Positions 1,592-16,473 of a stretch of DNA of 32,147 bases are shown here, piece by piece (the stretch's first letter is position 1; each line of letters starts with the position of its first letter). The notes beneath the pieces were generated by a model, which made no database searches, was not told where the DNA came from, and saw only the letters and a list, made by a program, of their open reading frames with translations. The position numbers and the translations under genes were made by a program. The stretch is from Natrinema gari JCM 14663 (lineage in GTDB: Archaea > Halobacteriota > Halobacteria > Halobacteriales > Natrialbaceae): positions 143,216 to 175,362 of the forward strand of contig NZ_AOIJ01000049.1 in assembly GCF_000337175.1 (NCBI RefSeq), given 5' to 3'.

Positions 1592-1644
1592 GTCGTCCGC
1601 TGTGCGTCTCGTGGCCGCCGTTCGCCTGAGACCGACCCGGACCA

Positions 1645-2741: not shown

Positions 2742-2822
2742 CGACTCACAATCTATCCATAGTGAATGTGTTTAGCGCGGCTGTAGACGCTGCTCAATCC
2801 GTAATCCGTTCACACTCTCTTG

Positions 2823-2921
2823 CTACTCTTCGAGCGGTGGGTCCTGAGAGGGAATGTAAACCTACTTCAATGGCACTGTCGCCTAATACTCGGATTCAAC
2901 GTTGTCTGATTGGAAAATCAG
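2823..2921 (-). pseudogene. Remnant of an mrr-type gene (C-terminal end, two in-frame stops)
   Basis: On the minus strand this reads LIFQSDNVESEY, a stop, ATVPLK, a stop, then VYIPSQDPPLEE and a final stop. The intact mrr gene at 5049-6059 ends LIQHYDDLESEYQATVPLKQ followed by VYIPSQDPPLEE. Both internal stops are CAG-to-TAG changes of conserved glutamines. DNA identity over the last 75 bases is about 80 percent. The remnant lies just inside the left island boundary and overlaps the last 4 bases of the 2918-3778 gene. It therefore marks a former second mrr copy that was cut off at that point. Confidence 0.8.
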
Positions 2922-3778
2922 TGTTCAACAGTTACGTCTGTACGTCGCAGATACTTGTCGTAGTTCCATGCAGATGCGATATTTAGAATTTTGCCAAGCT
3001 GGTATTCATAGGGTGTCAAGCTATGTGTCTCAATGTCCGGCATGGGGATGTCAGCGCGTGAGTCATCGACTGCGACGACGTACCCTTTGAGAACGGGCGA
3101 TGACCCATAGAAGATTGTGACTGTGAACTTCTGTCCGATGTGCGAGCCAAATTGAGCCCAATCCTCGTGGAAATCCTCGCGGTTCTCAAAGTCATCTCGT
3201 TCAATTCTCAAATCAACATCTGGCTCGTATGTGTAGCGTCCTTCAGTATCGTCATAGGTCCAGTCAGAGATGTCGGATTCTAAGATTGTTCTCTTAACGC
3301 TGTCCAATGATTCACTCTCCTCTACAAACTGGGGATAGTGTTTCTCTAGGAGCTCACGGTCATCCGAAAGTGCTAGGCTCAAATCGTCCCAGAACAGGAT
3401 GCGGAGGTCAAACACCCCGTCTTCACTCAACTCCTCTGAAAGCTCTCTTACTTCTTGTTGCAGCGGAGCATCAGATGGCGCAGCGCACGCAAATATGAAC
3501 TCGGAGAGTGGAGGCTCGAAATCCTTGGCCTTGTCAACCTCATCTTCCACAATATCAAGGTCGACTTCCGTCATGTTCTTACACTGAACACCTGCCAAAT
3601 CCCCATCTAAATGTGCGGGGGTTCCATAGATGTCGACTCCGTGTTGGGCCTGCCCTTGGCGTCCGTTCCTAGTCGTGTAGGGGTCGTCCCATTTCCGCTC
3701 TATCACATCTGCGACGATTGCCTCGAACTCTTCCCAGGATTCTGGGACTGGAAGTTCAGCCGTAGGAAATGTGGGCAT
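2918..3778 (-). CDS. Mrr/PD-(D/E)XK-type restriction endonuclease-like protein
   Basis: 286 residues. The N-terminal domain has the layout of a PD-(D/E)XK nuclease of the Mrr kind. There is an acidic helix around E17-E19, then HGVDIYG with Asp about 49, then GVQCKN with Gln 65 and Lys 67 (the QxK variant). Next comes an FWDDLSLAL...YPQF segment (about 125-150), which I associate with defence proteins that begin with such nuclease domains. The C-terminal 100 residues (VTIFYGSSPVLKGYVVAVDD) form a domain I do not recognise. It is the last gene of the minus-strand cluster. Its stop coincides with the decayed mrr remnant, so its own C-terminus may have been altered by that rearrangement. Likely DNA cleavage of foreign DNA, inferred. 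Confidence 0.75.
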   Translation of the reverse strand: MPTFPTAELPVPESWEEFEAIVADVIERKWDDPYTTRNGRQGQAQHGVDIYGTPAHLDGDLAGVQCKNMTEVDLDIVEDEVDKAKDFEPPLSEFIFACAAPSDAPLQQEVRELSEELSEDGVFDLRILFWDDLSLALSDDRELLEKHYPQFVEESESLDSVKRTILESDISDWTYDDTEGRYTYEPDVDLRIERDDFENREDFHEDWAQFGSHIGQKFTVTIFYGSSPVLKGYVVAVDDSRADIPMPDIETHSLTPYEYQLGKILNIASAWNYDKYLRRTDVTVEH

Positions 3779-3906
3779 TGTTAGTCCATCGGGTCAAATA
3801 CACCTGTTAACCTTTGGATAGCGAACGGTTCATAAATTGCGTGTGTCACCCTCGCCGTAGATTCGTTTGGTGAACACCTGGCAATCATTTAGGTCAGAGG
3901 AGTGCG

Positions 3907-4677
3907 CTACTCCGATAGCTCTAGGTCGTCGGGAACTTCGATAACGAACCCAGAGTACTCGGTCAGGTCAGGTTCAGATAGGACTGTCCGATATACGAAA
4001 TCAAATTCTTCTGAATCCTGTCCGAACGTGCAGAGGACGGGTTTGCCCCGGCTGAATTCTTCGTACTCCTGTATCACATCAACCTCCGGGGGAGGAGAGG
4101 ATTGACCGCCCTCTTTCCGGATGATGCGAGTATAATCAGTATCAACGACGACGATATCGCGGATATCGAGGTCAGTGGAAACCCATAGAATCTGCACCTT
4201 CGAAGTCCCGACCTCCAGCGTTCTGAAGCCGTCCATCCATGATTCTTGATTTCTTGCCCACTGTGAGACCGTTCTATGGAACTCCTTGTAGATGGGAATG
4301 AGAATATAATCGGGGTCTGGAACCTGACGATAGGCTTCGAGGATTAAGTCAAAAGTCAGGTTTTCTTCGAGTTCAGCAGATTCGACTTCTCCATCGACTT
4401 CATCAATGAATGAACGAGCGATGAATCCCTTCTCTCCGGTGACTATCGACTTAGCGAATTGGCTCGCAATCTGGAACGTGGAGTAGTTGTCACCCTGAGC
4501 AAAGAACCGTTTAGGGAGGTTCGTTCGCCGCCCTATCTGGATGAATGACTCGCCCGAATCTCTATCTTCGTCGTATGGAATCACCTCATGGTGTTTGGTG
4601 AGTATCGAGTCCTGCTCGTAGTCCGAATTTAAGTCGTTCACAAACCGCCGTAACTGCAGTTCATCAACGGGCATCAT
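3907..4677 (-). CDS. Unrecognised protein of the island defence-like cluster
   Basis: 256 residues from ATG 4677. This ATG overlaps the stop of the upstream two-TM gene (ATGA), so the pair is translationally coupled. A second ATG immediately follows at 4674. The protein is soluble and acidic, with alternating strand-like and helix-like segments such as DYILIPIYKEF and SKVQILWVSTDLDI. I can name no family and see no catalytic motif. Tight coupling with a small membrane protein suggests that the two gene products act together, perhaps sensor and membrane partner, but that is inference. Confidence 0.7.
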   Translation of the reverse strand: MMPVDELQLRRFVNDLNSDYEQDSILTKHHEVIPYDEDRDSGESFIQIGRRTNLPKRFFAQGDNYSTFQIASQFAKSIVTGEKGFIARSFIDEVDGEVESAELEENLTFDLILEAYRQVPDPDYILIPIYKEFHRTVSQWARNQESWMDGFRTLEVGTSKVQILWVSTDLDIRDIVVVDTDYTRIIRKEGGQSSPPPEVDVIQEYEEFSRGKPVLCTFGQDSEEFDFVYRTVLSEPDLTEYSGFVIEVPDDLELSE

Positions 4678-4982
4678 GTGGTTTCCTCTCGCTCAAGGGG
4701 TTCTCCTTCCCCCGTAATTTGGGGCGACTCCCCTAAATCTGCTATCTCCTCTTCTCTGCTTGGTGTATCGAGTTCTGCCTCAATCTCCCCGTATCGAACT
4801 CGACTAATGAATGGCAAAAACGGAACCAGTAGGAGGAGAACGATTAGAGCAACAATTGGCCAATCAATTTGCACACGGTCGGGATAGACGAGTGCCAAGA
4901 TGACCAATGCCGTTATGCCAAGAAACTCGAATAGGGGCGCGAGTAGTCTGAAATACCGGTTGGCTGTTCCGATTCGCCCCAT
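4674..4982 (-). CDS. Small two-TM membrane protein
   Basis: 102 residues. Two hydrophobic segments (about 11-32, LLAPLFEFLGITALVILALV, and about 40-60, IVALIVLLLLVPFLPFI) are separated by a short loop (YPDRVQID). A charged acidic cytoplasmic-type tail of about 40 residues follows, ending EGEPLEREETT. The last codons overlap the start of the next gene by 4 bp. A TATA-like element (gttgattatacg, about 5018-5029) lies upstream, so the pair may have its own promoter. Two-TM proteins are common effectors in prokaryotic defence operons, but nothing here proves that role. Confidence 0.75.
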   Translation of the reverse strand: MGRIGTANRYFRLLAPLFEFLGITALVILALVYPDRVQIDWPIVALIVLLLLVPFLPFISRVRYGEIEAELDTPSREEEIADLGESPQITGEGEPLEREETT

Positions 4983-5048
4983 TATTACTATTTGTTCGAC
5001 GCCGGGGTGACTTGAAGGTTGATTATACGCGACCTGTCTCGCTGCCTC

Positions 5049-6059
5049 TCATTCTTCGAGCGGAGGGTCTTGGGATGGAATATAGACCTGCTTTAGGGGA
5101 ACCGTCGCCTGATACTCGGATTCGAGGTCGTCGTAGTGCTGAATCAGGAGGTCAATAAACTCATCCCGGTCGATGAGTGTGACCCGCTGTTCGGCGTTCC
5201 GCGCGGCATCTTGTGCCTCACTTGTGTAGCCACCAGTCGAAACGAACAGGCCCCGTTCGCCGTTCCCGAGGGTTCCGGTGAATGCTCTCATATCCGGGGA
5301 GCCGACTTTCTTCTGTTGGCGCTTGACCTGTGCCTTGATATACGGCGATTCGAATCCCAACGAGTCGGGATGAGCGACTACGTCAATACCTCGGTCTTGG
5401 CTGTCCCGCGTCTTCTTCGCGTGGTATCCCATCGCTCGCAGGACTGCGGCGACCAACTCCTCGAAGATGAACGGGTCCATGTTCGCCAGAATGTCGGAGA
5501 TGAGTTCGTCTGCCTGGTTCTCCACTTCGTCGACGAATGGTACAGTGTCCTCGTCGTCCTCGCTCTCATCGGGTGTCTCCCCGCTTAGAACGCCCGTGAT
5601 TTCATCAATACAGTCGTCGAGCGAGAACACCGTGAGCGTGCTTCCGAGCGTGTTCTTCGTCGAGGTCGTGAACTCATCGCGGGAAACCGTATCCTCCCAT
5701 TCGACACGCCTGACGTGCGGATATCCTAGTGGGTGGTCGCTTGGTTTCCACTCGTACCCACTCGTGACCTCTCCAATGAGATACTCGCGCTCCGTCTTGT
5801 CGTAACTCAGAACTAGATGTCCCTCCTCCATTTCAAGCGCAAATCGATTCACCTGCCCCGCGTTCTGGGCGATACGCCGGCTATTGTGCTCGGAGTACTC
5901 GTCGGTCGAATTGAATCGGGCCTTCATCTCCTCGTATGACCGGACATCAGACACATCCCCCAGTTCCTCCCATCCAACCGCGACCAGAGAACGAGATTCG
6001 AATTCCTCGACTAACTCGTTGTCATTCCCGGCGCGAACCATGAACGCTCGCTCAGCCAT
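5049..6059 (-). CDS. mrr: Mrr family restriction endonuclease
   Basis: 336 residues. The C-terminal half is an Mrr catalytic domain of the PD-(D/E)XK fold: FIFEELVAAVLRAMGY with Glu 200/201, RGIDVVAH with Asp 226, and IKAQVKRQ with Gln 244 and Lys 246. It is followed by LFVSTGGYTSEAQDAA, a typical Mrr segment. The N-terminal 150 residues (AFMVRAGNDNELVEEF, then GEVTSGYEW) form a separate, probably base- or DNA-reading domain. An acidic linker (ESEDDEDTVPF) joins them. Mrr enzymes cut DNA, often modified DNA. It lies 75 bp downstream of the zinc-ribbon gene on the same strand. A decayed fragment of a close relative lies at 2823-2921. Confidence 0.9.
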   Translation of the reverse strand: MAERAFMVRAGNDNELVEEFESRSLVAVGWEELGDVSDVRSYEEMKARFNSTDEYSEHNSRRIAQNAGQVNRFALEMEEGHLVLSYDKTEREYLIGEVTSGYEWKPSDHPLGYPHVRRVEWEDTVSRDEFTTSTKNTLGSTLTVFSLDDCIDEITGVLSGETPDESEDDEDTVPFVDEVENQADELISDILANMDPFIFEELVAAVLRAMGYHAKKTRDSQDRGIDVVAHPDSLGFESPYIKAQVKRQQKKVGSPDMRAFTGTLGNGERGLFVSTGGYTSEAQDAARNAEQRVTLIDRDEFIDLLIQHYDDLESEYQATVPLKQVYIPSQDPPLEE

Positions 6060-6134
6060 ATTATCCGAACTGTTCCGAACCTCGAGGTATCAAGGTTCGC
6101 ACGTTCCCCGTCTTTCGGCGTGGTCCAAATTTGG

Positions 6135-6251
6135 CTATACGTGAAAGTTCTCGCCGCAGTTTCGACACGTTGCCCATCCACCTTGCTTCACTTTCTGGTT
6201 CTCGCCACACTCGGGGCATTCGCGCCAGACGGAACGATTGTGATGACTCAT
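6135..6251 (-). CDS. 38-residue zinc-ribbon protein
   Basis: The minus strand from ATG 6251 encodes 38 residues ending at TAG 6135. It contains CPEC followed after 16 residues by CRNC, a four-cysteine zinc ribbon, with Trp residues at WRECPEC and GGWATC. The ATG lies 2 bp after the stop of the GHKL ATPase gene, so it is almost certainly co-transcribed and translationally coupled with it. Mini zinc ribbons often act as nucleic-acid or protein adaptors. The spacing suggests it is a partner of the ATPase. It is short and easily missed by gene finders. Confidence 0.8.
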   Translation of the reverse strand: MSHHNRSVWRECPECGENQKVKQGGWATCRNCGENFHV

Positions 6252-6253
6252 TG

Positions 6254-7651
6254 TTATTCTATAGCCGATTCCGCAACTTCGCCAAGGAGTTGGGTAAGTG
6301 CGTCCTCAAACCGCCTCGTTAGGTCGGAAGCACCGCCGCTTTTGGGATGAGCTACTTCGTGAAGGAGTGTACTCGCAAATGTACGCGGACTCTGAAGCCT
6401 ATCCCGACGGATAACAATTCTCCGTTCTCCCCCTTCCCAGACGCCCCTCGCCATGTCACCCTGTTCTGTCATTCGAACAGTTTCTGAAACCCGTATTTCA
6501 TCGACTGGCGGTCGTTCATCAAGCAACCCGAGTATCTCATCACGGAGGTTCCAGACTCGAAGCTCTTCGTTCGTCATTTCGTTCTCTGGAACCCACTCGT
6601 ATTCGTGAGCTTCATTGTACTCTTGGCGATAGACTCCTACGTCACGAATTTGATTTCCTTCAGCGTCTCGTTCGTTCCGTAGTTCGTCTCGAATATTGTC
6701 GGGAACCGTGACAACGCGATGACCCTCTCGCTGTGCATGGTCCAATAGGTCGACTTTGCGGTTTTGTTCTTCAACTGTCGCAAATACCACGTTATCTTGC
6801 GCGTTCAGAAGTTTCACGGCGTGCAGACGAATCGGCTTCCAATTCACCTCGTCATGTGTCGTCCCATCAGTGAAGTTCTCGAAGTCGTCTACGAGGCGCT
6901 GAGCGACATCTGTGGTTTCACACTCCCGAAGGATATCTTTCACCCGCGAACTGTATGCCGTACGTCCCACGTTTGAACGCTCCCGATTCAAGGCGTCTCG
7001 CACTTGCTTGGTCGTCTTCGTGATATTGTAGCTGAAAAGGAAGTTCTCCTCGGTAGCGACCTTGAGCCCTGTCACGTAGATACGAGAATCCTCGCCTGCG
7101 GGGGAAGCGTAGACTTCTCCGAACTTGGTTTCCTCCAGTAGTTCGTCGTCGGTGAAACGTAGGAAGTTGCTTTTGGCCTGGTCGATTTGGCTCTCGGTGA
7201 TGCCCTCGAGAACCACGTCCGTCCCCTCAATATCTTGCTCTGGGGGATAGATGAGTCCGTGCAGCGTTTCGATGTCTTCGAAATCTGCCTTGGGTGCTTT
7301 CTCGACGGTAATTGTCTCGTGCTTCGAGTGAATGGTCACGTCGACTCCGTTCCGGTAGAACGTCGCAAGCGCGTCCTTCAATCCGACGCCGAATTTCCCG
7401 ATTACCTTGTCCGGGTTGTTCAGCTTCTCCTCGTCCTCGTTCTGCGTGAGATGCTCGTGGCGTAGCCCTCGACCGTAGTCCCGAATGTGCCATCTCCCCT
7501 CGTCGTCTTCGTAGATTTCTACTTCACTTGTCTCTGTGAGGGCCTGTTCGTCGAGGGCGTTGGCGATTACCTCTCGGGTTGCATCCGCGACGCCCCACGC
7601 CTCAAGCACCTCCTCCATATTGAGGTCGAATTTTCGCGCCTGTTCGGACAT
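6254..7651 (-). CDS. GHKL (Bergerat-fold) ATPase fused to a C-terminal HExxH metallopeptidase-like domain
   Basis: 465 residues. The N-terminal 200 residues carry all Bergerat ATP-binding motifs: N-box EVIANALDEQ (Glu 27, Asn 31), G1 box RDYGRGL (Asp 58, Gly 60, Gly 62) and G2 box GKFGVGLKDAL (85-95). This is the MORC/Hsp90-like type of GHKL ATPase. The middle (about 200-400) is not recognised. The last 40 residues contain LLHEVAH (His 431, Glu 432, His 435), a zinc-peptidase signature, with a possible third ligand at Glu 449. It is the first gene of the minus-strand cluster. A TATA-like element (gtctaaactt on the minus strand, 7680-7689) lies just upstream. The fusion suggests ATP-controlled proteolysis; the target is unknown. 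Confidence 0.85.
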   Translation of the reverse strand: MSEQARKFDLNMEEVLEAWGVADATREVIANALDEQALTETSEVEIYEDDEGRWHIRDYGRGLRHEHLTQNEDEEKLNNPDKVIGKFGVGLKDALATFYRNGVDVTIHSKHETITVEKAPKADFEDIETLHGLIYPPEQDIEGTDVVLEGITESQIDQAKSNFLRFTDDELLEETKFGEVYASPAGEDSRIYVTGLKVATEENFLFSYNITKTTKQVRDALNRERSNVGRTAYSSRVKDILRECETTDVAQRLVDDFENFTDGTTHDEVNWKPIRLHAVKLLNAQDNVVFATVEEQNRKVDLLDHAQREGHRVVTVPDNIRDELRNERDAEGNQIRDVGVYRQEYNEAHEYEWVPENEMTNEELRVWNLRDEILGLLDERPPVDEIRVSETVRMTEQGDMARGVWEGGERRIVIRRDRLQSPRTFASTLLHEVAHPKSGGASDLTRRFEDALTQLLGEVAESAIE

Positions 7652-7796
7652 GCGATGCTTGTTAGCTTGGAACGTTCTTGAAGTTTAGACAACCAACGTG
7701 AAAGTGAAACCGCGATTCCCCCGCAAACCCAAGAATTAGTGTAGTGCTCTCAGGAACTCGGGGGTTCTGCACGTTCAGGATGTTCCCGTAGCTGCT

Positions 7797-8456
7797 CTAA
7801 CTCTCGTCGGTCTGCTGAAGACGCAAGCTCGCGGAACTGTTTACCTCGTAACGCCATCCACGCCGTTTCGAGGGCTTGTCGTTCCGTTTCTGGGCGGGAA
7901 TCCAGGTGCAGTCGCCAACGTACTGTCGACTCCCGTTTGAGGCGAAAGCGAATGCTGTCGTTTGCTCTGGTATCTCGGTGAGCGCATCCGCCACTGACAG
8001 AAGATATGGCTCACTCAGGACGACGAATAGCAAGTCATACTCCCGGCTCAGTACATCACTGAACGCCTGAGGTATTCCCTTCTCGCGGCCGACTGCCTGA
8101 ATCGTCTCGTCGTTCGTCAGGTCGTCAATATCGTATCCCGTTCGCTTGGCCCTCGTTCGAACGGATTCTATGTCGCTGAACCCGCACTCATAGGACGGAA
8201 TTTCGGTCCTGTCACGTAGTAATCCAAATCCCGCGGAAATGATGTACCAGTCGACATCTGCAACCTCACGGAGATGAGTGACTGCCTCTTCGACGTGCTT
8301 GTGCTCACGACCAGTGTACATGTTGGACGCAGTCGTCGTGTACTCGCCGTGTTCATTCGCTAATTCCTCGCGCGGACACTCGTCTACGTCCTCACAGTCG
8401 AGAACGGGGTCGTATCGTTTGTCTTTGGAACACGGCGAGAGTACGAGGATGTCCAT
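7797..8456 (-). CDS. DUF6884/YaaA-like protein
   Basis: 219 residues. It opens LVLSPCSKDKRYD. Later it has NMYTGREHKHVEEA and DWYIISAGFGLL followed by IPSYECGF. This order (Cys-Ser-Lys near the N-terminus, a YTG segment, an ISAxxGL strand and a PxY) matches the DUF6884 and peroxide-stress YaaA-like superfamily. That superfamily is structurally linked to nucleobase-handling and DNA-binding proteins. The C-terminus (KRNDKPSKRRGWRYE) is basic. The gene is divergent from the GIY-YIG-like gene with 73 bp between the starts. It may act on nucleic acid or modified bases; that is inference. Confidence 0.65.
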   Translation of the reverse strand: MDILVLSPCSKDKRYDPVLDCEDVDECPREELANEHGEYTTTASNMYTGREHKHVEEAVTHLREVADVDWYIISAGFGLLRDRTEIPSYECGFSDIESVRTRAKRTGYDIDDLTNDETIQAVGREKGIPQAFSDVLSREYDLLFVVLSEPYLLSVADALTEIPEQTTAFAFASNGSRQYVGDCTWIPAQKRNDKPSKRRGWRYEVNSSASLRLQQTDES

Positions 8457-8529
8457 CCGTCGTTCTACTCGAAGCCGTCGTACCGAGTGGTGAAACTCTT
8501 TGTGCGTGAATGAGAGGAATCCTGTAAGA

Positions 8530-9258
8530 ATGGCTCGTCAGGACGACCTCGACCGCTTCTATGGGTTACTCGACGACCTTGAACAACGAGTCGGCGGTAC
8601 ACGGAAACTCAAGAACTGCACCGGGTACATGGACTGGCCCGACCGCGGCGTCTACTTCTTCCTCGAACCGGGCGAAACACGCGCCTCGACTGACCAGCTG
8701 CGCGTCACCCGCGTCGGGACACATGCGGTGTCTGCGGGGAGTAGCACGTCGCTCTGGGATAGATTGAAACAACACTACGGAACGGGCAGCGGGAGTTCCA
8801 ACCATCCTCACGGGGGCGCTCACCGTGGTTCCGTGTATCGCAAGCGCGTCGGCGAATCTATCATTGAGAAACACGACCTGCACGACGACTATCCCGACTG
8901 GGACAAACGCTGGTCAAGCGTCGAGCGTGAGCGGGCAGAGGTTCGTGACGAGGAATATATCCTCGAGCGCCGGGTGAGCACCTACATCCGGGAGCAGCCA
9001 TTCCTCTGGGTAAATCTCGATGACGAACCGAGTGCCGACAGCGACCGAGCGTACCTCGAACAGAATGTTATCGCTCTCCTCAGCAACTTCGACGAGCAAC
9101 CGATTGACCCACGAGGAAGCGGATGGCTCGGTCGGCACAGCCAGAGTCAGGCGATACGGGAATCAGGTCTTTGGAACGTGAATCACGTAGACGAGCGGTA
9201 CGATAGTGGATTTCTGGACCTTCTTGAGAACGCCATCAACGGTACGACTCCGCCATAG
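8530..9258 (+). CDS. GIY-YIG nuclease-like protein
   Basis: From ATG 8530 it has 242 residues. An in-frame TTG at 8500 would add 10, but I prefer the ATG because MARQDDLDRFYGLLDDLE starts a helix. GVYFF (about residues 40-44) and VTRVGTHAV (60-68) correspond to the paired GIY and YIG strands. They are followed by SLWDRLKQHYGT and HRGSVYRKRVG, in which basic residues recur. The later LERRVSTYIREQPFLWVNLDD fits the rest of the fold. GIY-YIG domains cut DNA in homing, repair and restriction enzymes. It is convergent with the PD-(D/E)XK-like gene (8 bp between stops) and divergent from the DUF6884-like gene. Confidence 0.65.
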   Translation: MARQDDLDRFYGLLDDLEQRVGGTRKLKNCTGYMDWPDRGVYFFLEPGETRASTDQLRVTRVGTHAVSAGSSTSLWDRLKQHYGTGSGSSNHPHGGAHRGSVYRKRVGESIIEKHDLHDDYPDWDKRWSSVERERAEVRDEEYILERRVSTYIREQPFLWVNLDDEPSADSDRAYLEQNVIALLSNFDEQPIDPRGSGWLGRHSQSQAIRESGLWNVNHVDERYDSGFLDLLENAINGTTPP

Positions 9259-9266
9259 CGTGGTAG

Positions 9267-10268
9267 TTAGTCGGAATCCTCTAATTCGGTTGTGTACTCG
9301 GGGCTATTCCGAAGCTTCGAGAATGAGACGTAACGGTGTCCCTGGACAAAGGCAACCGTGCGGTCAGAATCACTCGCTGTCTTGTCGTTCTTCACCGGGT
9401 GGTTAAGTTCGATACCATCACGCAGGAAGATGACTTTCTCCGTTTCACCGTACCGTTCGGACCCCTCTTTGCGAAACTGCGTCACTGCATCAAGCAGTTG
9501 TTCGCGCTGCGACTGCGAGAGGTCAGGGTGATTTCGCACTGTCTCCTCGGTGAGTTCGATGCTCTCGATGGCATCCGTTACTGACGGGACTGCTGTTTTG
9601 ATTTCAGCGTCGGTGTAGAACGCGAGGTGGTCGACAGGCTTGAACGACCGATTCGCCTGGCAGAAGTATAGCCCGTGCTCTTGATATTCGGGCCATGCCT
9701 TGCGAGCCGCGACGACCAGCACGCGGTCCTCTTTTCCGCTGACGAGGTCTTCGTCGTAGAGAAAGCGACTGAGTTCGCGCAGAAGGAACGCTTCACGTTC
9801 GGTTGGGACGGACATACTCGCCTCGGCGTTCCCTACGTCTCGTTCCAGCACCGTCTCGATGGTGTCAATGAGCGAGTCGAAGTTGGCCCATACGATGCGC
9901 TCGTCATTGATTGCGGCCACCTCGTCAGGGAGTCGAGCATCCGGAGTCAGGACAATGAGACGCTGCAATTCCGTTTTGTCCTCGTCGAGTGCATGAAGAT
10001 GGTTTTCGAGTTGTTCCTTGTCCACAGCGTCCCGACTCGTCTTCGTCTCGAACCAGAGCGCAGTTGAACTCTTGATTGCAGCATCGGGGACCGAGTCGAC
10101 GCCTGTCACTTGATTATCGAACGAGACGAGCGACAGGTCCGATTCGTCGGTCAACGCTTCCAGAATATCTTCCGCTAATTGGTTGTTGACGTGCTCAAGG
10201 ACGGCAATGACTGTTGATGTAACTCGGTTTTCGCCTTGTGTGTACGTCGAGAAGAGGGGATTTGGCAT
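9267..10268 (-). CDS. PD-(D/E)XK nuclease-like island protein
   Basis: I take ATG 10268 (MPNPLFSTYTQGENRVTSTV) as the start. A TCTTTTGA box sits about 28 nt upstream, and nine codons further upstream look unlike protein. The 333 residues begin with a helix ending ILEALTD, then VDSVPDAAIKSSTALWFETKT. A PDA...ExK arrangement of this type is the active-site pattern of PD-(D/E)XK nucleases. VLTPDARLPDEV and WANFDSLIDTI follow, as in restriction-type folds. The C-terminal half contains EHGLYFCQANRSFKPVDHLAFY and is not recognised. Likely DNA-directed defence, moderate confidence. Confidence 0.6.
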   Translation of the reverse strand: MPNPLFSTYTQGENRVTSTVIAVLEHVNNQLAEDILEALTDESDLSLVSFDNQVTGVDSVPDAAIKSSTALWFETKTSRDAVDKEQLENHLHALDEDKTELQRLIVLTPDARLPDEVAAINDERIVWANFDSLIDTIETVLERDVGNAEASMSVPTEREAFLLRELSRFLYDEDLVSGKEDRVLVVAARKAWPEYQEHGLYFCQANRSFKPVDHLAFYTDAEIKTAVPSVTDAIESIELTEETVRNHPDLSQSQREQLLDAVTQFRKEGSERYGETEKVIFLRDGIELNHPVKNDKTASDSDRTVAFVQGHRYVSFSKLRNSPEYTTELEDSD

Positions 10269-10314
10269 GCAACGACATACAGAGACGCACCTCAAAAGAT
10301 TCCGGATGGACGTA

Positions 10315-10911
10315 TTATCGATTTGCAGATAAAACGGCCCGTGCGACTTTGGTGTCCTTTTCAGCTAGGTGATAGAATATAAGCAAACTCTTGTCCGAGT
10401 TTCGTGTGTAAATCACCTCATACGGTGGCTCATCGATGGCTTCCAAATTTTGAATGTCGAACTCGTGGGTGTTTGTTCCCATTTGCAAACCGTACCAAAA
10501 TCGGTCCCCTTGGTCCTGTCCTACAGTAATGAACCCAATCGGCTCACCATCCGAGGAGATTGCAGTACGCGCAGTATTCTCACCTATGTTTTCAGCAGTG
10601 GCAGCCAATTCAGGTACATGAGAGGAGTGATTATCGGCATCTTCGATAAAATGGAAACGAGTTTCGTCAGTGACCTTTAGGTCGATGAATTTCCAGGTAT
10701 CGTCCTGTCTCGTGATGGACTCACTCTGAATTTCGGCCTCAATGATGTTCCCTGGTTCCAAGGCGTCAATTTTAGTCTGGAGGGATTCGCCGTATTCCTC
10801 TCGTTCTTTATTGACGTGGACTGGCAAACCTGTGTCTACAATATCGTTTAGCAGTGCATCTTCTTCGTCAAATTCTAAGACCCGAAATCGGCTCTCAATT
10901 ATCTGTGCCAT
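10315..10911 (-). CDS. Conserved-looking haloarchaeal protein of unknown function
   Basis: 198 residues from ATG 10911. The protein is acidic, mixed alpha/beta and without membrane segments. Its N-terminus (SRFRVLEFDEEDALLNDIV) and the segment ALEPGNIIEAEIQSES, followed by WKFIDLKVTDETRFHFIED, suggest an OB-like or beta-barrel N-terminal part. I associate it weakly with DUF6663. It shares a promoter region with the divergent gene at 10970. The gene is noticeably AT-richer than the island flanks. Confidence 0.6.
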   Translation of the reverse strand: MAQIIESRFRVLEFDEEDALLNDIVDTGLPVHVNKEREEYGESLQTKIDALEPGNIIEAEIQSESITRQDDTWKFIDLKVTDETRFHFIEDADNHSSHVPELAATAENIGENTARTAISSDGEPIGFITVGQDQGDRFWYGLQMGTNTHEFDIQNLEAIDEPPYEVIYTRNSDKSLLIFYHLAEKDTKVARAVLSANR

Positions 10912-10969
10912 TCTTTTTCTGACGTTCTGCTACAAACGATTTATTTTTGCTGGTACTCAATCGGGTTCT
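10912..10969. promoter_or_regulatory. Shared bidirectional promoter
   Basis: The 58-bp gap between divergent starts contains one AT-rich block, tttattttt (10940-10948). Its centre lies about 26 nt before the ATG at 10970, the standard spacing for a leaderless haloarchaeal gene. It also lies about 31-33 nt before the ATG at 10911 in the other direction. Confidence 0.6.
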
Positions 10970-11674
10970 ATGACTTCTGAGGATGAGAGGGAACCCATCT
11001 TTGAACGGATTCGGGGGCATGAAGCTCGTGACGTAATCGACGAGAGGCAGAAATTCAGATGGCGGCACACCACATTACTGAATGACTTCCACGATTTGCA
11101 AGATATCCATGAACTGGACACCCCACACGCCACCGAACGAACTCAACAACTCGAAACACAGGGCTATGTTTTCGAGGTTGAGCGGAGGCTCCACCACTAC
11201 CTTTCAGGTCTCTATACCCTTCTCCAACAGCAAAGAACGCTTCAAAACGGAGTAGGTCAGTCATTTGGAGAGGATTTGCAGGAGGTAAAAAACGAATACA
11301 TGAGAAAAGAGTCGTCGAGAGCAGTCCTGGGTCTACGGCACTATGCACAGCATGAGAACGTATTGCCGTTACAGGCACGGACATCAAAATTAGAACGTTC
11401 CAAGTCGCTCGTTGTCATGGTCGACGACCTTCACCGAGAAGATGACGACCGTGATTTCGAACAGCATTTCGGTCATATCACGAAACCATACTTTGACCCG
11501 TCTGAGTGGGTGATTGATAATTGGCCAGACGTAGAGCAGTTCTTTGAGGATACTATCGAGGTGATGGAACAACAGGCAGAGGAAGAAATCGATGAGCTAG
11601 CGCAACTCAGTGAGGAGGTTGATGAACTATATGAACAGCTTGCGGAGGATTACAGAGAGCTACAAGAGGAATAG
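10970..11674 (+). CDS. Helical, coiled-coil-rich protein of unknown function
   Basis: I place the start at ATG 10970 (MTSEDEREPIFERIRG), because the TATA-like box lies 26 nt upstream. The frame is open further upstream but overlaps the divergent gene. The 234 residues are almost all charged helix. The C-terminus (about 195-234, QAEEEIDELAQLSEEVDELY) is a strong coiled-coil candidate. No catalytic motif is visible. The divergent arrangement with 10315-10911 suggests co-regulation. Function unknown. Confidence 0.65.
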   Translation: MTSEDEREPIFERIRGHEARDVIDERQKFRWRHTTLLNDFHDLQDIHELDTPHATERTQQLETQGYVFEVERRLHHYLSGLYTLLQQQRTLQNGVGQSFGEDLQEVKNEYMRKESSRAVLGLRHYAQHENVLPLQARTSKLERSKSLVVMVDDLHREDDDRDFEQHFGHITKPYFDPSEWVIDNWPDVEQFFEDTIEVMEQQAEEEIDELAQLSEEVDELYEQLAEDYRELQEE

Positions 11675-11756
11675 CAGTAGCTACGGTCATCACATCCGTC
11701 GTTGCTATCCATAGGCCTAGGAGCGTCCAATCGTAATTATCTGTTGTGAGACACGA

Positions 11757-12290
11757 ATGAGTGACGAAGAGCCACAGCAAACCGAGTGGGAGAACGAGGT
11801 CGGCTTGTCCGAGGAGACGACCTACGTTGCGCTCTACCCGAGCCGCAAGCACGCCGAGGAGTGGATGGAGGAGAGCGAGGAGCAAGGCTACGGGAGCCGG
11901 TCAAAGTACCTCTATGAACTGATACAAGAGGCCCGCGCTGCCCGTCAAGAAGGGTTCCTCGCATACAGTCAGAACGAGTCGAAGGTGGAAGAACTACAAC
12001 TGCAAGTCGAGCAGTTGCAGGACGACCTTGAAGACGCTCGTAACTCCGAACCCGGTGAAATCGATATCGAACACGAGGAGTTCGTCACTGCGTTCCTCAC
12101 CGACCGCTACCAGGAGTTCGAAACCATTCTCAAAGAGGTGACGGGGAGCGGCGTCCTCACGGGAATCGTCAAGGATGCTGTTGAGGAGCAGCTGTTCGAC
12201 CTCGCAGAAGAGAACAAAGTCGAGTATAAGCAAGGGTATGGGTGGCGACTTACTCACGACGACGCTGACGCGGAGGTGGTCGAAGCATGA
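11757..12290 (+). CDS. DUF5805-like integrase-associated protein
   Basis: 177 residues. The N-terminal part (TTYVALYPSRKHAEEWMEE, then GYGSRSKYLYELIQEARAAR) looks like a ribbon-helix-helix-type segment. A coiled coil follows at about 75-100 (KVEELQLQVEQLQDDLEDA). The C-terminal winged-helix-like part ends KQGYGWRLTHDD. I associate this with DUF5805 proteins of haloarchaea. The stop overlaps the integrase start by 4 bp (ATGA at 12287-12290), so the two are co-translated. It may be an integrase accessory or directionality factor; that role is inferred from position. Confidence 0.7.
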   Translation: MSDEEPQQTEWENEVGLSEETTYVALYPSRKHAEEWMEESEEQGYGSRSKYLYELIQEARAARQEGFLAYSQNESKVEELQLQVEQLQDDLEDARNSEPGEIDIEHEEFVTAFLTDRYQEFETILKEVTGSGVLTGIVKDAVEEQLFDLAEENKVEYKQGYGWRLTHDDADAEVVEA

Positions 12291-13219
12291 CGGGGAAGAC
12301 CCGCGAGAAGATTTACGAGAACGAGCACGACGCGGTCAACGACTTCATCCAACGGAAGGAGGCGATGGGGCGCAGTCGTCGAACGCTCAACGCCTACTCC
12401 CGAACGCTGAAATCATTCTTCCACGAGGAATTCCCTGACCTCGCGCCCGAAGACGTCAAGGTGGAACATATCGAGGACTACGTCGGTACGCTTGCCGACC
12501 GCAACCTTTCGCGGAACACGAAGCGGCGATACCTCGAATCGCTGTCGTCGTTCTACGGGTGGACGATGAAGCGGCCACGGTTTGAAGATATCACTGGGAA
12601 TCCCGCAGCGGTCGTCCTCGAAGAAATCCCACAGAAGTACCGCGACCGTCCCGACTGCGCGACGTGGGAGAGCGCAAAGAAAATCGTCCATAACATCGCT
12701 GACCCACGGAACAAGGCGATTGCCGTCATTCTCGCAAAGACGGGTTGCCGGATTCGCGAGGCACTCGAAATCGAACAGGACGACCTCATGCTTGATGACG
12801 GATTCATCCGCCTTCGTGAGCGCAAGGGCGGGAGTCAAACAGTCGTCCCTGTTGACGAGGAGGTGAAGCACGCCATCAAACGGTATCGTCTCGTTCGCCC
12901 AGATAGCGACTCCGAGTACTTGTTCCTGAGCATTCGCGGGAATCGGGTGAATACGACGCAGGTGCAGCGAGCCGTTCGTGACGCTGCGGTCGAGGCAGGC
13001 GTGATGGACGAGGGCGAGACGCGCTTTCACCGCAAGTTTACCCCTCACACGTTCCGGACAGTATTCACGACACTGATGCGTAACAACGAGATGCCGGACC
13101 ACTATCTCCAGTACATCAGGGGAGATTCAAATTCTCGTACCATGGACATATATACAAGGGTTGACAGATACGATGCGAAGCAGTCGTATCTTGAGTGCAT
13201 CGAGTTACTCGACCTCTAG
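12287..13219 (+). CDS. Tyrosine recombinase / phage-type integrase
   Basis: 310 residues. The N-terminal SAM-like core-binding domain (about 15-95) contains RTLNAYSRTLKSFFHEEF. The catalytic domain has TGCRIREAL (Arg 155), a strand with Lys in RERKGGSQTVV, and HTFR (His 254, Arg 257). The nucleophile is Tyr 289 in MDIYTRV. The position usually held by a second histidine reads IRGDSNS, so Asp replaces His, as I recall from other archaeal integrases. It cuts and rejoins DNA at attachment sites and likely moved part of this island. No matching attachment core is obvious next to it. Confidence 0.92.
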   Translation: MTGKTREKIYENEHDAVNDFIQRKEAMGRSRRTLNAYSRTLKSFFHEEFPDLAPEDVKVEHIEDYVGTLADRNLSRNTKRRYLESLSSFYGWTMKRPRFEDITGNPAAVVLEEIPQKYRDRPDCATWESAKKIVHNIADPRNKAIAVILAKTGCRIREALEIEQDDLMLDDGFIRLRERKGGSQTVVPVDEEVKHAIKRYRLVRPDSDSEYLFLSIRGNRVNTTQVQRAVRDAAVEAGVMDEGETRFHRKFTPHTFRTVFTTLMRNNEMPDHYLQYIRGDSNSRTMDIYTRVDRYDAKQSYLECIELLDL

Positions 13220-13381
13220 CCTCCCCCTCGTGGAGCAATACGGGGAGACACGAAGAAACGCGGTCGTGAAGCAAGTCGATGGGGCGGGTCCCTGTGTTCT
13301 ATCAGACAGCCACCGAACCGCGGTTCCGACCGAGTGTCTTCGGTCTAAGACGAATGAGTATCATCGTGTCTTCTGATTGTT

Positions 13382-13711
13382 TCAGAGCGCACCGCTCCAC
13401 GTCAGGTACGCTATAGCTGCGACGGGGATTGACGAGTACGCCCAGGCCAGCGTGTAGTACCATCCTGGAAGGGATTCGTCGAACCCGTATGTATAGAGGG
13501 CGAGGCCAGCAACGAGAAGCCCGATATTCGCGTACCAGGAGAGCCAGTTGCTCACGAATGAGTAGTCGTATAGGTGGATGTTGATGGCTGCGACGTTCGC
13601 CCAGATGGCGGGTCGGCTGATGTACTGTTTCTCGACGAGCAATCCGAGTAGTATCAATGCAATCACGTCCAAATTCTCGATGACGACCGCAGGAAGCACC
13701 TCAATCCACAT
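13382..13711 (-). CDS. Small integral membrane protein
   Basis: 109 residues from ATG 13711. An AT-rich box (gataatgg, about 13734-13741) lies 26 nt upstream. There are three to four hydrophobic segments: about 5-24 (LPAVVIENLDVIALILLGLL), 35-52, 58-77 (WYANIGLLVAGLALYTYG) and 86-106. Tryptophan and tyrosine are abundant at the membrane edges. No family is recognised. It is convergent with the integrase gene. Confidence 0.65.
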   Translation of the reverse strand: MWIEVLPAVVIENLDVIALILLGLLVEKQYISRPAIWANVAAINIHLYDYSFVSNWLSWYANIGLLVAGLALYTYGFDESLPGWYYTLAWAYSSIPVAAIAYLTWSGAL

Positions 13712-13938
13712 GCATCGTACTTGTTGGGTGGCAAGATAATGGTTGTCCGAGCGGAGTGAAACTAATCGCAGTTTGAGCCCGTAAATCGCTTAACTAGAGT
13801 CCATCGGTGTCCCTGCTTTCGCGTCTCCGCAAAGACGCGCAACGCTGTCCCTGTTCGTGACCCCGGCCCCTACGATGTAACAGATGAAACCTGCCCTGCA
13901 AGAGCGAGGAGTTTGCTTCGTCTCACAGGAGTCGTTTC
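13712..13938. other. Intergenic region with a 7-bp hairpin
   Basis: No gene is seen. CGCGTCT (13820-13826), loop CCGCAA and AGACGCG (13833-13839) form a perfect 7-bp stem between two leftward genes. It could be a terminator-like or regulatory structure. The following bases are not T-rich on either strand. Confidence 0.4.
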
Positions 13939-14322
13939 TCAATCCGATTTGAGGAATCCGAGGACGTTATCAGTGACATGCAAGAGTCCCCACAGCGGTA
14001 GTCCGACGACGAGCACCCCGAACCAGTAGATGAAGAGGGCTATGTCGAGAGGATGCAGGAGCGCAGTGATGGGCAGACCCACTGCGTTGAGTCCGATGGC
14101 GAGCAGGAACGAGACGAACCCGAGGAGGTTCAGGGAACCAACGGCGCGACGAGGTGACTGGAACGGGCCACGAGGATAATCCTGCGAGTCGCCATCCGTC
14201 GAGGTCACGTCGGCGGTCGTCTCGGGTTCGTAGTCATCTCCAACTGCGGTACCACACTCGGGACAGTACGAGGTCTCATTATCAAGCTCTGCACCACATT
14301 GTTGGCAGTATCGGTCTGGCAC
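13939..14322 (-). CDS. Zinc-ribbon membrane protein
   Basis: 127 residues. The N-terminus is a zinc ribbon, YCQQCGAELDN with YCPECG (two CxxC pairs, residues about 5-25). A Ser/Asp-rich linker follows. Two to three hydrophobic segments occupy about 63-83 (LNLLGFVSFLLAIGLNAVGL) and 88-118. This N-terminal ribbon with C-terminal membrane layout is common in haloarchaea (zinc-ribbon-domain proteins) and is usually uncharacterised. It may anchor protein complexes at the membrane. Confidence 0.78.
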   Translation of the reverse strand: MPDRYCQQCGAELDNETSYCPECGTAVGDDYEPETTADVTSTDGDSQDYPRGPFQSPRRAVGSLNLLGFVSFLLAIGLNAVGLPITALLHPLDIALFIYWFGVLVVGLPLWGLLHVTDNVLGFLKSD

Positions 14323-14904
14323 GACGCTACGCTCGGAGAAGATGCTGGTAGGTGTGGTGGAGGATTTTCTATTCCGAATCAGACTGAATCCCCTGAGATA
14401 GAGATTCTCCTGTTCTTTGTGGGACTGGCTGAGCCACTAGTCCGAGTCGTTGCCTCCACGTTCACTTCACGGACACGGGAGCAGCTTGCGTCGTCTGACG
14501 ATGGACGGAATAATCTGTGTGTTCCATCCTCTCGTCTCTACTATCGCTTAGACTGCAAGTGTCTTTGTTTAGAACAGATGTCATATATTTAACAACGAGT
14601 GGGAAGACGGGTGTTTGAGAAGATACCGTTGTTATACTCTTTCAACGGAGTCAATCACTACTCATCTATTGGTACAGTAAACAGCCAAAAAAGCTAGCTA
14701 CTTGCGTAGCTAGTAAAAAACTCGATTTGACCCGGTGTTGATGGAGGTGAGATTGAGCTTGCTAATGACTACCGTGTCAACCCTTCGTCCTAAATACGGG
14801 GTCATTATTGGCTCGTACGTGTAATCCGAGGTGGTCACTCACTTCCGAGCGTGGAGCCTCGATGGTCAGTTGGGCTACGAGCGGTTCGTTGGAAGGCTTC
14901 ACAC
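14323..14904. other. AT-rich non-coding region upstream of the AAA ATPase
   Basis: About 580 bp without a convincing gene. It contains two inverted repeats. TAACAACG (14590-14597) pairs with CGTTGTTA (14627-14634). CTAGCTAC (14694-14701) pairs with GTAGCTAG (14706-14713) across loop TTGC and is followed by taaaaaa. The setting, upstream of an element-type ATPase, fits operators or replication-origin elements, but no iteron array is visible. Confidence 0.5.
14694..14713 (+). other. Perfect 8-bp inverted repeat (hairpin or operator)
   Basis: CTAGCTAC, TTGC, GTAGCTAG: an 8-bp perfect stem with a 4-nt loop. It is flanked by A-rich tracts on both sides (ccaaaaaa before, taaaaaa after). It lies about 190 bp upstream of the AAA ATPase start. 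Confidence 0.6.
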
Positions 14905-16473
14905 ATGGTGTCGAAAATGGCTAAAACCCAATCCTACGACGGACGAGATGCACAGGAAGAGAAAGCAAAGACGGTTGGGCCGATTTACGAAAGCCCACGA
15001 GGATGGCCCCGTGACCTCCCCGCGAATGTGCTTTCATTGGAGTTCTCGAATTATTCTGATGACGAACTCGGAGAGCGGTACGAATCGTCACGCAGGGAGT
15101 ACTCGACAGCTGAAATCAATCGGGCCCGAGGTCGAGGACCCGAGAGTCGTGAACAAAAGCTCGCTCGCAGGTACGAGCGTGCCAAGAAGAGTTCCAAAGG
15201 GGCGACTTCGGCAGCAACGAGCGCCGCGAACAGGTCGTCTGAAATCAATGGCTCAGACGGCGAAAGCGCTCGGAATTCAAGCGACTCTCCCGAACTGACG
15301 ACGAAGCCTTCTCTTGCGGACTACGACGTGCGAGAGGTCATCCGTGACGAGTTCGACGAAGAGGGCTGGACGGTGATGAAGCCGTTATTGGCAACCCACG
15401 CGACGTTGCTGCTTGATGACATCGAATCATCCCGAGCGATGATGGTCGAGGGCCAGTCGGGCGTGGGCAAGACGATGCTACTCAAAACGTTCGGGGGGCT
15501 CACCGAGCAGTTTTGTCGTCGTTCAGATATCACTCCTGCCTCGTTCGTGAGCGCAGGGCCTTCAAAATCGACAGGCAACTCGACTAATACAGACTTACTC
15601 CCACAACTCGAAGGCCGGACTCTCGCCGTGCGCGACGCCCAGACATTATTTGGAGGGAGCGAGCAGACGATTCAGAGCCGGTGGGGGACGATGGCACGGA
15701 TAATGGACGGTGACGGCTTCTACCGCCATACTGCGACCCACGGTAAGGCCGGGTACGATGATATCCGGTTCAATTTCATCGGTGCGACAACACCTCTTAG
15801 CCCGCGAGCGTGGAGGATGATGGGCAACGTAGGGCAGCGCCTTCTCTTCGTCGAGTGGCCCGAGGAGGAGTACGATGATGGGTGGCTGGCATCTGTGGTT
15901 GACGGAGGTGAACGGCGACCCATTGAACGTGGCCAAGATGTCGTCCAAAAATTTCTACATGACCTCTGGGAGTTCCACGGCGGCTCATCAAGCGTTACAT
16001 GGGACGACGAGCGTCCGAACGAAGTCATGGAGCTGATTGAATATCTCGCCAAAGTCGTCATCTACGCCCGCGCTTCAATCATAAATAGAGAGTCACAACG
16101 CGAGGCTCCGAAGCGAATCGGGCAGCTCCTCCACGACCTCGCCCGTGGTCACGCGCTCATCCACGGTCGCACCCATCTCGAACTCGAAGACGTCGAAGTA
16201 TGTGGACGGGTTGCCCTGAGTACCATGCCGTCGAAACGTCGGGGAATCGTCCGGGCGCTCCTCGACCCGGACCGGGACGCCCCACTCACCGCAAGCGATG
16301 TGGAGACGATTCTGGACGTGAGCCGGCCGACCGCCCGCGACCGTATTGACGACGTGGTGGCTCTCGGCTTCGGGGAAGTCGTTGAGACAACCGGACGCGG
16401 GGGGACCACGAAGGCGGTCGAGGTGAACTCGGAGTTCCGCTGGCCTGACGGAGTCCCGTTCCCCGAGTTCTAG
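14905..16473 (+). CDS. AAA-type ATPase with C-terminal winged helix
   Basis: I choose ATG 14905, which has GGAAGG 8 nt upstream. ATG 14917 and an earlier in-frame GTG at 14851 are alternatives. About 522 residues. A variable, Ser-rich N-terminal 130 residues precede the ATPase core. Walker A is EGQSGVGKTMLL. A later IGATTPLSPRAW segment resembles sensor 1, and QRLLFVEWP follows. The C-terminal 90 residues (LTASDVETILDVSRPTARDR) form a winged helix for DNA binding, ending in VPFPEF. The layout suits a replication-, partition- or maintenance-type ATPase of an integrated plasmid or virus. Exact role unknown. Confidence 0.75.
   Translation: MVSKMAKTQSYDGRDAQEEKAKTVGPIYESPRGWPRDLPANVLSLEFSNYSDDELGERYESSRREYSTAEINRARGRGPESREQKLARRYERAKKSSKGATSAATSAANRSSEINGSDGESARNSSDSPELTTKPSLADYDVREVIRDEFDEEGWTVMKPLLATHATLLLDDIESSRAMMVEGQSGVGKTMLLKTFGGLTEQFCRRSDITPASFVSAGPSKSTGNSTNTDLLPQLEGRTLAVRDAQTLFGGSEQTIQSRWGTMARIMDGDGFYRHTATHGKAGYDDIRFNFIGATTPLSPRAWRMMGNVGQRLLFVEWPEEEYDDGWLASVVDGGERRPIERGQDVVQKFLHDLWEFHGGSSSVTWDDERPNEVMELIEYLAKVVIYARASIINRESQREAPKRIGQLLHDLARGHALIHGRTHLELEDVEVCGRVALSTMPSKRRGIVRALLDPDRDAPLTASDVETILDVSRPTARDRIDDVVALGFGEVVETTGRGGTTKAVEVNSEFRWPDGVPFPEF

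What the first reader, a model, noticed from the sequence alone, without database searches (positions are those of the whole stretch)
7797..10268. DUF6884-like, GIY-YIG-like and PD-(D/E)XK-like genes packed together
Three proteins with nucleic-acid-type folds lie back to back, two of them convergent by 8 bp. DUF6884/YaaA-like proteins are tied to base or DNA handling. Paired with two different nuclease folds, this could be a modification-sensing restriction unit.
Basis: inference. Interest (0 to 1): 0.55.

Follow-up and report, generated by a model that had tools for sequence, protein, structure and literature searches.

The report
Base-sensing protein paired with DNA-cutting nuclease
In a salt-loving archaeon, a small protein of a family thought to feel for odd DNA bases sits next to a likely DNA-cutting enzyme, and because the two recur side by side or fused into one protein in distant microbes, they are probably one virus-defence tool, while the third gene looks like a separate defence gene that only happens to be nearby.

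Summary
All three genes are real and their folds are supported, but they are not one unit. Gene 1 (7797-8456, -) is a DUF6884/YaaA-type protein, scoring best against DpdC. Gene 2 (8530-9258, +) is a divergent GIY-YIG-fold protein that Pfam misses. These two form a recurring pair: DUF6884 lies within 3.5 kb of gene 2 in 43 of 100 haloarchaeal loci (27 within 200 bp; several orientations; two DUF6884 subfamilies), and a DUF6884/YaaA partner is beside or fused to gene 2 in 11 of 11 bacterial loci with a full or near-full copy, four of them fusions, in both domain orders. PADLOC already lists the pair as a defence candidate, PDC-M57. Gene 3 (9267-10268, -) is predicted to be a PD-(D/E)XK nuclease joined to a PUA-like (ASCH/EVE/YTH) reader. 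In 17 other loci it never has gene 2, has a broken DUF6884 beside it once, and sits with BREX genes five times. Best reading: a mobile defence island carrying separate modification-sensing restriction modules. Limits: the window's gene 1 is frameshifted near its C-terminus, 57 of 100 haloarchaeal gene-2 copies have no DUF6884 nearby, and nothing was tested at the bench.

The parts
7797..8456 (-). P1: DUF6884/YaaA-type, DpdC-like protein, proposed base sensor or base-acting enzyme; C-terminus frameshifted in this copy after about residue 188
   Evidence: DUF6884 26.9 bits, DpdC 50.1 bits, PDC-M57A 19.6 bits; C9, S10, K13, SAGFG invariant in 19 sequences; sequence like the relatives' C-terminus is readable in another frame
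8457..8529 (.). 73-bp divergent gap between P1 and the ATG of P2 (a TTG start at 8500 is also open)
   Evidence: start choice
8530..9258 (+). P2: GIY-YIG-fold protein, proposed nuclease, PADLOC PDC-M57B
   Evidence: E 4e-69; G40, Y42, R61, R78, E142, E146, R173, E177 invariant in 60 sequences; model pLDDT 91; the four entries listed are GIY-YIG nucleases
9267..10268 (-). P3: PD-(D/E)XK nuclease domain (about 3-156) plus PUA-like ASCH/EVE/YTH domain (about 176-324); separate module
   Evidence: P61 D62, E74 T75 K76, Q86 invariant in 16 sequences; (BREX contexts; no P2)
5049..6059 (-). P6: Mrr-type restriction endonuclease (PDC-S02), another module of the same island; its relative stands in P1's place beside P2 in L116
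11757..13219 (+). P10 and P11: integrase-linked protein and tyrosine integrase; P11 matches recur near P2
   Evidence: Phage_integrase E 1e-27; 11 of 100 P2 loci have a P11 match, one of them weak

Best explanation
P1 and P2 are the two halves of one DNA-restriction module, the pair that PADLOC lists as candidate PDC-M57. P1, with a DUF6884/YaaA fold, would scan DNA, flip out a modified or damaged base and hold it or act on it. P2, with a GIY-YIG fold, would then cut the DNA near that site, so foreign DNA carrying the wrong base is destroyed. Shown by calls: family membership, motifs, predicted folds, recurrence in several layouts, fusion in both orders, parallel divergence of the two partners. 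From print, as model or binding data: base flipping by DUF6884 and lesion binding of its member YfjM. Inferred: that P2 cuts, that P1 directs it, and that the target is viral. P3 is a separate nuclease-plus-reader protein in the same integrase-bearing island. In this strain the pair may be failing, because P1 is frameshifted.
For: PADLOC assigns P2 to PDC-M57B, and P1 to DpdC and, weakly, PDC-M57A. DUF6884 lies within 3.5 kb of P2 in 43 of 100 haloarchaeal loci, 27 within 200 bp, in divergent, convergent and same-strand layouts and from two DUF6884 subfamilies; 1 of 17 P3 neighbourhoods had one. Of 13 further loci, 11 are bacterial with a full or near-full P2, and all 11 have a DUF6884/YaaA partner adjacent or fused. 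Fusions in one open frame: L062, L070, L258 (DUF6884 then P2), L065 (P2 then YaaA). P1-like and P2 identities correlate, r 0.63 over 19 pairs, 0 of 5000 permutations as high (no species-tree control). P2 model: the four entries listed are GIY-YIG. In integrase cassettes 2 of 6 cargo proteins scanned are GmrSD-like. DUF6884 motifs, cleft, base-flip model and YfjM lesion binding: PMC11701544, passages.
Against: 57 of 100 haloarchaeal P2 loci have no DUF6884 in the stretch fetched (about 5 kb each side; six stretches shorter), and of the 27 loci with 65% or more identity to the window's P2 only one has it. Read by hand, 15 of the 27 genomes behind L113-L139 hold DUF6884 anywhere, like the 225 of 391 of the class, so P2 does not seem to need it in trans. 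Window P1 is frameshifted. GIY-YIG is not seen by Pfam (0 of 60), and Z 5 is modest. I know of no measured activity for either protein. No match to P2 in 50,697 phage records at E <= 0.01.
Confidence: 0.5

Rival explanations
1. P1-P2 is a DNA-repair pair: DUF6884 finds abasic sites or ribonucleotides in the cell's own DNA and the GIY-YIG protein incises there, as UvrC does.
For: YfjM, a DUF6884 protein, is reported among interactors of abasic and ribo lesions (PMC11701544, passage). The nearest structure of P2 is the UvrC endonuclease domain. In 89 of 100 P2 loci no P11-like integrase was found in the stretch fetched.
Against: Patchy: P2 in 99 of 391 genomes, 40 of 86 genera, and in no same-genus genome but the window's own. 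Integrase cassettes with GmrSD-like genes, and an Mrr gene in the window. PADLOC lists the pair as a defence candidate.
Confidence: 0.2
2. P1 is a true DpdC-like enzyme of 7-deazaguanine DNA modification, and P2 is the restriction arm of a small Dpd-like system.
For: P1 scores best against DpdC. In L054/L145 the order is DpdC-like, DpdA, P2. In L053 a DpdA relative (57% identical over residues 1-716) and a P1-like domain form one 970-aa open frame beside P2.
Against: No DpdA in the host genome at E <= 1e-10, and DpdA in only 56 of 391 genomes. Of the 100 P2 loci L112-L211 only L145 has a DpdA match.
Confidence: 0.12
3. P1, P2 and P3 form one three-gene restriction unit.
For: Tight packing with an 8-bp convergent gap. 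L116 also has P2 and P3 close together, L114 has a P3 remnant by P2, and L223 has a split DUF6884 beside P3.
Against: P2 absent from 17 of 17 other P3 neighbourhoods, P1 likewise by sequence; P3 with BREX in 5 of 17; L116 lacks P1.
Confidence: 0.05
4. P2 is a stand-alone nuclease, and DUF6884 is an optional regulator, antitoxin or immunity partner.
For: 57 of 100 haloarchaeal P2 loci lack DUF6884 nearby; the partner state changes at least 23 times on a 114-row FastTree tree, shuffled mean 43.5.
Against: 11 of 11 bacterial loci are paired or fused; an antitoxin fused to its toxin is unusual (general knowledge).
Confidence: 0.13

Closest known systems
PADLOC candidate PDC-M57 (M57A DUF6884 + M57B)
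   Same: P2 matches M57B over nearly its whole length; the canonical DUF6884 partners in L055 and L064 match M57A, as do the fused ones in L062 and L070.
   Different: The window's P1 belongs to a longer DUF6884 subfamily that scores far better against DpdC than M57A and is transcribed divergently. No paper naming PDC-M57 was found; I saw no test of it.
PUA-superfamily modification-dependent restriction enzymes (EVE-HNH VcaM4I; EVE fusions to PD(D/E)XK and GIY-YIG nucleases)
   Same: A base-flipping reader coupled to a nuclease (PMC7897488, abstract and outline; PMC7641849, passages). P3 has this architecture by prediction.
DpdC of the 7-deazaguanine DNA modification islands
   Same: P1 matches DpdC profiles; dpdC is given as an example of DUF6884 (PMC11888242, passages).
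   Different: No DpdA in the host genome at E <= 1e-10; the partner is a GIY-YIG protein.
Base-excision defence: Brig1 and PabI-family restriction glycosylases
   Same: Would share the logic of attacking DNA through a single base (PMC11078745: outline with abstract, passages, sections 10 and 13; PMC10273834: passages).
   Different: Brig1's best structural matches are uracil-DNA glycosylases; no glycosylase activity is known to me for DUF6884.
BREX-linked type IV enzyme BrxU
   Same: Like P3 in 5 of 17 loci, a candidate modification-dependent enzyme encoded with BREX (search listing with starts of abstracts only).
   Different: BrxU is of the GmrSD family; P3 is PD-(D/E)XK plus a PUA-like domain by prediction.

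Membership tests
PDC-M57 | M57B protein | tested here: met
   P2, E 3.8e-69 over residues 11-248 of the 252-aa reading
PDC-M57 | M57A (DUF6884) protein adjacent | tested here: inconclusive
   P1 is adjacent but scores only 19.6 bits to M57A against 50.1 to DpdC. Related copy L060: 22.3 bits
DUF6884 (PF21818) | Score over the Pfam cut-off of 30 bits | tested here: inconclusive
   Window P1 26.9; relatives L060 30.5 and L054 31.7
DUF6884 (PF21818) | CxxxK and LSAxxG motifs | tested here: met
   C9, K13, S74, A75, G78 invariant in 19 sequences, with I or V before the S; motif definition
GIY-YIG nucleases | Sequence profile match | tested here: inconclusive
   No Pfam GIY-YIG match in 60 members; a profile can miss divergent members
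GIY-YIG nucleases | Fold | tested here: met
   UvrC GIY-YIG domain Z 5.0, rmsd 2.6, 83 of 89 residues; R.Eco29kI Z 4.0; no other fold among the four entries listed. Modest Z; Foldseek E 5.6
GIY-YIG nucleases | GxY, a second xG motif, conserved Arg and Glu | tested here: met
   G40, Y42, R61, R78, E177 invariant and G63 nearly so in 60 sequences; the catalytic roles are from recall
PD-(D/E)XK nucleases (P3) | PD...ExK motif on an alpha/beta core | tested here: met
   P61 D62 and E74-T-K76 invariant in 16 sequences; topology; R.BspD6I small subunit Z 8.1, MspJI 6.9
PUA-superfamily modification-dependent restriction enzymes (P3) | PUA/ASCH/EVE/YTH-like reader fused to a nuclease | tested here: met
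   Residues about 176-324 align with ZmASCH Z 7.4, VcaM4I 6.9, YTH about 6.5; Z below 8, so by prediction only
PUA-superfamily modification-dependent restriction enzymes (P3) | Cleavage depends on a modified base | not testable with these tools
   Needs an assay
Dpd system (DpdC) | DpdA in the genome | tested here: not met
   G000 has no match at E <= 1e-10
Dpd system (DpdC) | Converts dPreQ0 to dADG in DNA | not testable with these tools
   Needs mass spectrometry

The most novel reading that the evidence does not exclude
P1-P2 restricts viral DNA that carries 7-deazaguanine bases. The DpdC-like P1, descended from an enzyme that worked on such bases in DNA, now finds them in invading genomes (possibly excising or converting them), and the GIY-YIG partner cuts there. 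The target would exist: Halovirus HVTV-1 carries dPreQ1 at about 30% of its guanines (PMC6884629, passages). P1-like domains stand beside or fused to DpdA next to P2 in L054/L145 and L053.
Probability: 0.12. Interest if true: 0.8.

Novelty: new variant of a known kind. Interest (0 to 1): 0.52.

Why it matters
DUF6884 is widespread (225 of 391 genomes of the class at E <= 0.01, 205 over the cut-off) and Pfam gives it no function. A partner with a nuclease fold that is fused to it in both orders gives a concrete, testable role: base sensor or base-acting enzyme for a nuclease. If true, it adds another kind of reader domain to modification-dependent restriction and would link the DpdC branch of 7-deazaguanine chemistry to defence against modified viruses. 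P3 adds a likely nuclease-plus-reader enzyme that in haloarchaea can lie within BREX loci.

Tried and rejected
One three-gene unit: not supported, because P2 is absent from 17 of 17 other P3 neighbourhoods and P1 likewise by sequence; L223 with a split DUF6884 beside P3 is the one partial exception.

Profile searches for GIY-YIG in P2 by Pfam and by PDB sequences gave nothing useful, and Foldseek alone was not significant. The fold claim rests and the conserved residues. PDB sequence searches with P3 and P1 profiles also gave nothing useful.

P2 in phage records: no match. Bacteria beyond the loci already held: in the class of G391 only G391 itself matched, 1 of 246; in the phylum of G392, 5 of 111, G392 included.

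Attachment sites: repeats in window 1-16000 showed no flanking pair that convinced me. Orphan P2 loci: a motif search for a hidden DUF6884 gave no candidate that looked credible by eye. PDC-M57 by name: no paper. DUF6884: two papers. In PMC12988326 the terms M57 and GIY-YIG do not occur in the main text. PHROGs gave only weak matches for P1-P3.

Left out of counts: L073 (a 25-residue match at a contig start), L230 and L231 (plasmid regions; L230 has DUF6884 3 kb downstream of P2, L231 none annotated nearby), and the short fragments.
Full report
What is there. The window's genome (G000:C49) groups with Halobacteria by its relatives. P1 (7797-8456, -), P2 (8530-9258, +) and P3 (9267-10268, -) are open frames. 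P1 and P2 diverge; P2 and P3 converge with 8 bp between them. From about 2 to 22 kb the G+C is 0.49-0.57, against 0.61-0.66 beyond. A tyrosine integrase gene follows at 12287-13219 (Phage_integrase E 1e-27).

P1. DUF6884 scores 26.9 bits against a cut-off of 30, and YaaA 14.3; PADLOC gives DpdC 50.1 and PDC-M57A 19.6 bits. The 19 aligned sequences, window included, keep C9-S10-x-x-K13 and S74-A-G-F-G78, the two motifs that Pfam's authors call a possible part of an active site (PMC11701544, passages). The same passages say that DUF6884 shares the YaaA core and a positively charged cleft, that the Bacillus member YfjM was found among interactors of abasic and ribo lesions, and that a model flips a nucleotide into the pocket. 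The window's copy departs from the 18 relatives after about residue 188, and sequence like their C-terminus is readable in another frame: either a break or a sequencing error.

P2. No Pfam family matches the window protein, and none of the 60 aligned members matches a GIY-YIG family. PADLOC's PDC-M57B matches nearly end to end. The 60 members share invariant G40, Y42, R61, R78, E142, E146, R173 and E177, all present in the window. The predicted model is confident (pLDDT 91, pTM 0.89). Foldseek found nothing significant (R.Eco29KI at E 5.6). The second-look aligner listed four entries, all GIY-YIG endonucleases: two of UvrC (Z 5.0 and 4.9, rmsd 2.6, 83 residues) and two of R.Eco29kI (Z 4.0 and 3.8). 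I take the fold as supported, not proven.

P1 and P2 are a pair. P2 occurs in 99 of 391 genomes of the class, fragments included, in 40 of 86 genera, and in no same-genus genome but the window's own. I fetched 100 of its neighbourhoods, leaving out most short fragments. With profiles built from P1-like and from canonical DUF6884 proteins, 43 of 100 have DUF6884 within 3.5 kb and 27 within 200 bp. Layouts: P1-like divergent 12 within 200 bp and 5 further off; canonical upstream on the same strand 9; canonical convergent 5; canonical downstream on the same strand 1 close and 11 at 1.4-3.1 kb. The set holds near-copies, for example the Haloarcula-type plasmid loci. As a rough control, 1 of 17 P3 neighbourhoods (214 kb) has DUF6884, against 43 loci in the 1.05 Mb of the P2 set.

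In bacteria the link held wherever I could see it. Of 13 loci, 11 are bacterial with a full or near-full P2, and all 11 have a DUF6884/YaaA partner: in one open frame in L062, L070, L258 (DUF6884 first) and L065 (YaaA last), adjacent or overlapping in L064, L066, L069, L229, L256, L257 and L259. The partner is weak by profile in L256 (E 0.004 and 3e-5), L066 (0.0015) and L069 (0.0003); in L065 it was seen by Pfam's YaaA (E 1.5e-12), not by my profiles. P2 of L259 is distant (E 2e-23). The other two are L260, a fragment, and L063, an archaeal contig that begins about 550 bp before P2. L073, a 25-residue match at a contig start, was left out.

Pairwise identities of P1-like proteins and of their P2 neighbours correlate: r 0.63 over 19 pairs, and 0.91 over 14 after dropping window, L112, L060, L145 and L053; 0 of 5000 permutations as high in both. 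Plain descent from a common pair would give this too.

What speaks against an obligate pair. 57 of 100 haloarchaeal P2 loci have no DUF6884 in the stretch fetched, six of the 100 stretches being cut short. Among the 27 loci with 65% or more identity to the window's P2 only one has it. On a 114-row FastTree tree the partner state needs at least 23 changes (shuffled mean 43.5); there L066 and L069 were scored as having none because the profiles had missed their partners. Reading by hand, 15 of the 27 genomes behind L113-L139 hold a DUF6884 anywhere, like the 225 of 391 of the class. So P2 can persist without DUF6884, and in the window's own clade the pairing may be a late event.

P3 is something else. 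The 16 aligned sequences keep P61-D62 and E74-T-K76. The model (pLDDT 79, pTM 0.59) has MspJI as best Foldseek hit (E 2e-3). In the second look, residues about 3-156 match PD-(D/E)XK enzymes (R.BspD6I small subunit Z 8.1, AF1548 8.0, MspJI 6.9, FokI 6.4) and about 176-324 match ASCH (Z 7.4), VcaM4I (6.9) and YTH domains (about 6.5). By the tool's own note such scores can also arise from a common arrangement; I rely on both halves being coherent. Only the C-terminal half is matched in plasmids of Rhodococcus and Arthrobacter. Nuclease plus PUA-superfamily reader is the plan of many modification-dependent restriction enzymes (PMC7897488, abstract; PMC7641849, passages). P3 matches occur in 37 of 391 genomes, fragments included. 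Of 17 neighbourhoods other than the window and L116, none has P1 or P2 by tblastn and none P2 by profile. One, L223, has a canonical DUF6884 split over two frames close to P3. Five have BrxB, BrxC and PglX of BREX, and a sixth, L215, has a protein in the PglX cluster.

The setting. 11 of 100 P2 loci have a match to P11, one of them weak (L207, 25% identity), and the cargo between P2 and the integrase differs. Of six cargo proteins scanned, those of L147 and L149 are GmrSD-like (PADLOC NsnA/PD-T4-2 and HEC-05), that of L145 is a pentapeptide-repeat protein, and those of L116, L140 and L152 had no match. In the window the cargo includes P3, with an Mrr protein (PDC-S02) on the other side of P1. 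In L116 that Mrr gene stands in P1's place beside P2. This looks like a mobile island with exchangeable restriction modules.

How it most likely works. Inferred: P1 flips out an abnormal base and P2 cuts nearby; the fusions argue that both act on one DNA molecule. The DpdC likeness of P1, the DpdC-like/DpdA/P2 order in L054/L145 and the DpdA-DUF6884 frame beside P2 in L053 suggest 7-deazaguanine as one possible target. Only one of the 100 P2 loci L112-L211 has DpdA, and the host genome has none at E <= 1e-10, so where DpdA is missing the base would be foreign. A halovirus with dPreQ1 at about 30% of its guanines is known (PMC6884629, passages). That is a lead, not a result. A repair role remains the main rival.

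Novelty. The pair is already a named candidate in PADLOC. Searches for PDC-M57 and DUF6884 in the open library found no paper on the pair.

Noticed in passing
window 6254-7651 (-): GHKL-type ATPase domain with a C-terminal HExxH stretch weakly like DUF6782 metallopeptidases; PHROG 6077 E 3e-26. An unusual ATPase-peptidase join beside the restriction genes.
   Followed up: no
window 2827-2921 and 5053-5147: A 95-nt direct repeat at 77% identity; one copy is the 3' end of the Mrr gene, the other lies just before ORF 2918-3778, itself weakly Mrr_cat. Perhaps the remnant of an Mrr paralogue.
   Followed up: partly
window 7797-8456: P1's C-terminus is frameshifted relative to the 18 relatives aligned.
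   Followed up: yes
window 18728-19894 (+): PLD-family protein matching RE_NgoFVII and DrmC/DpdK profiles: another possible nuclease in the island.
   Followed up: no
window 1712-2164: Repeats at 36-nt spacing within ORF 1645-2583, whose product is weakly like DUF445.
   Followed up: no
L217, L218, L219, L224, L226: Relatives of P3 lie in BREX loci together with BrxB, BrxC and PglX: a candidate BREX-linked nuclease-plus-reader.
   Followed up: partly
L223:5442-5875 (-): A canonical DUF6884 gene split over two frames lies close to a P3 relative, without P2.
   Followed up: partly
L053:2963-5872 (-) and L232:1474-3171 (+): DpdA-like sequence and a DUF6884-type domain share one open frame (970 and 566 aa): natural DpdA-DUF6884 fusions in haloarchaea, the first of them beside P2.
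   Followed up: partly
L069, L066: In Actinoplanes a DUF7662 domain is fused to the YaaA-like partner of P2; in Kribbella a DUF7662 protein precedes it.
   Followed up: no
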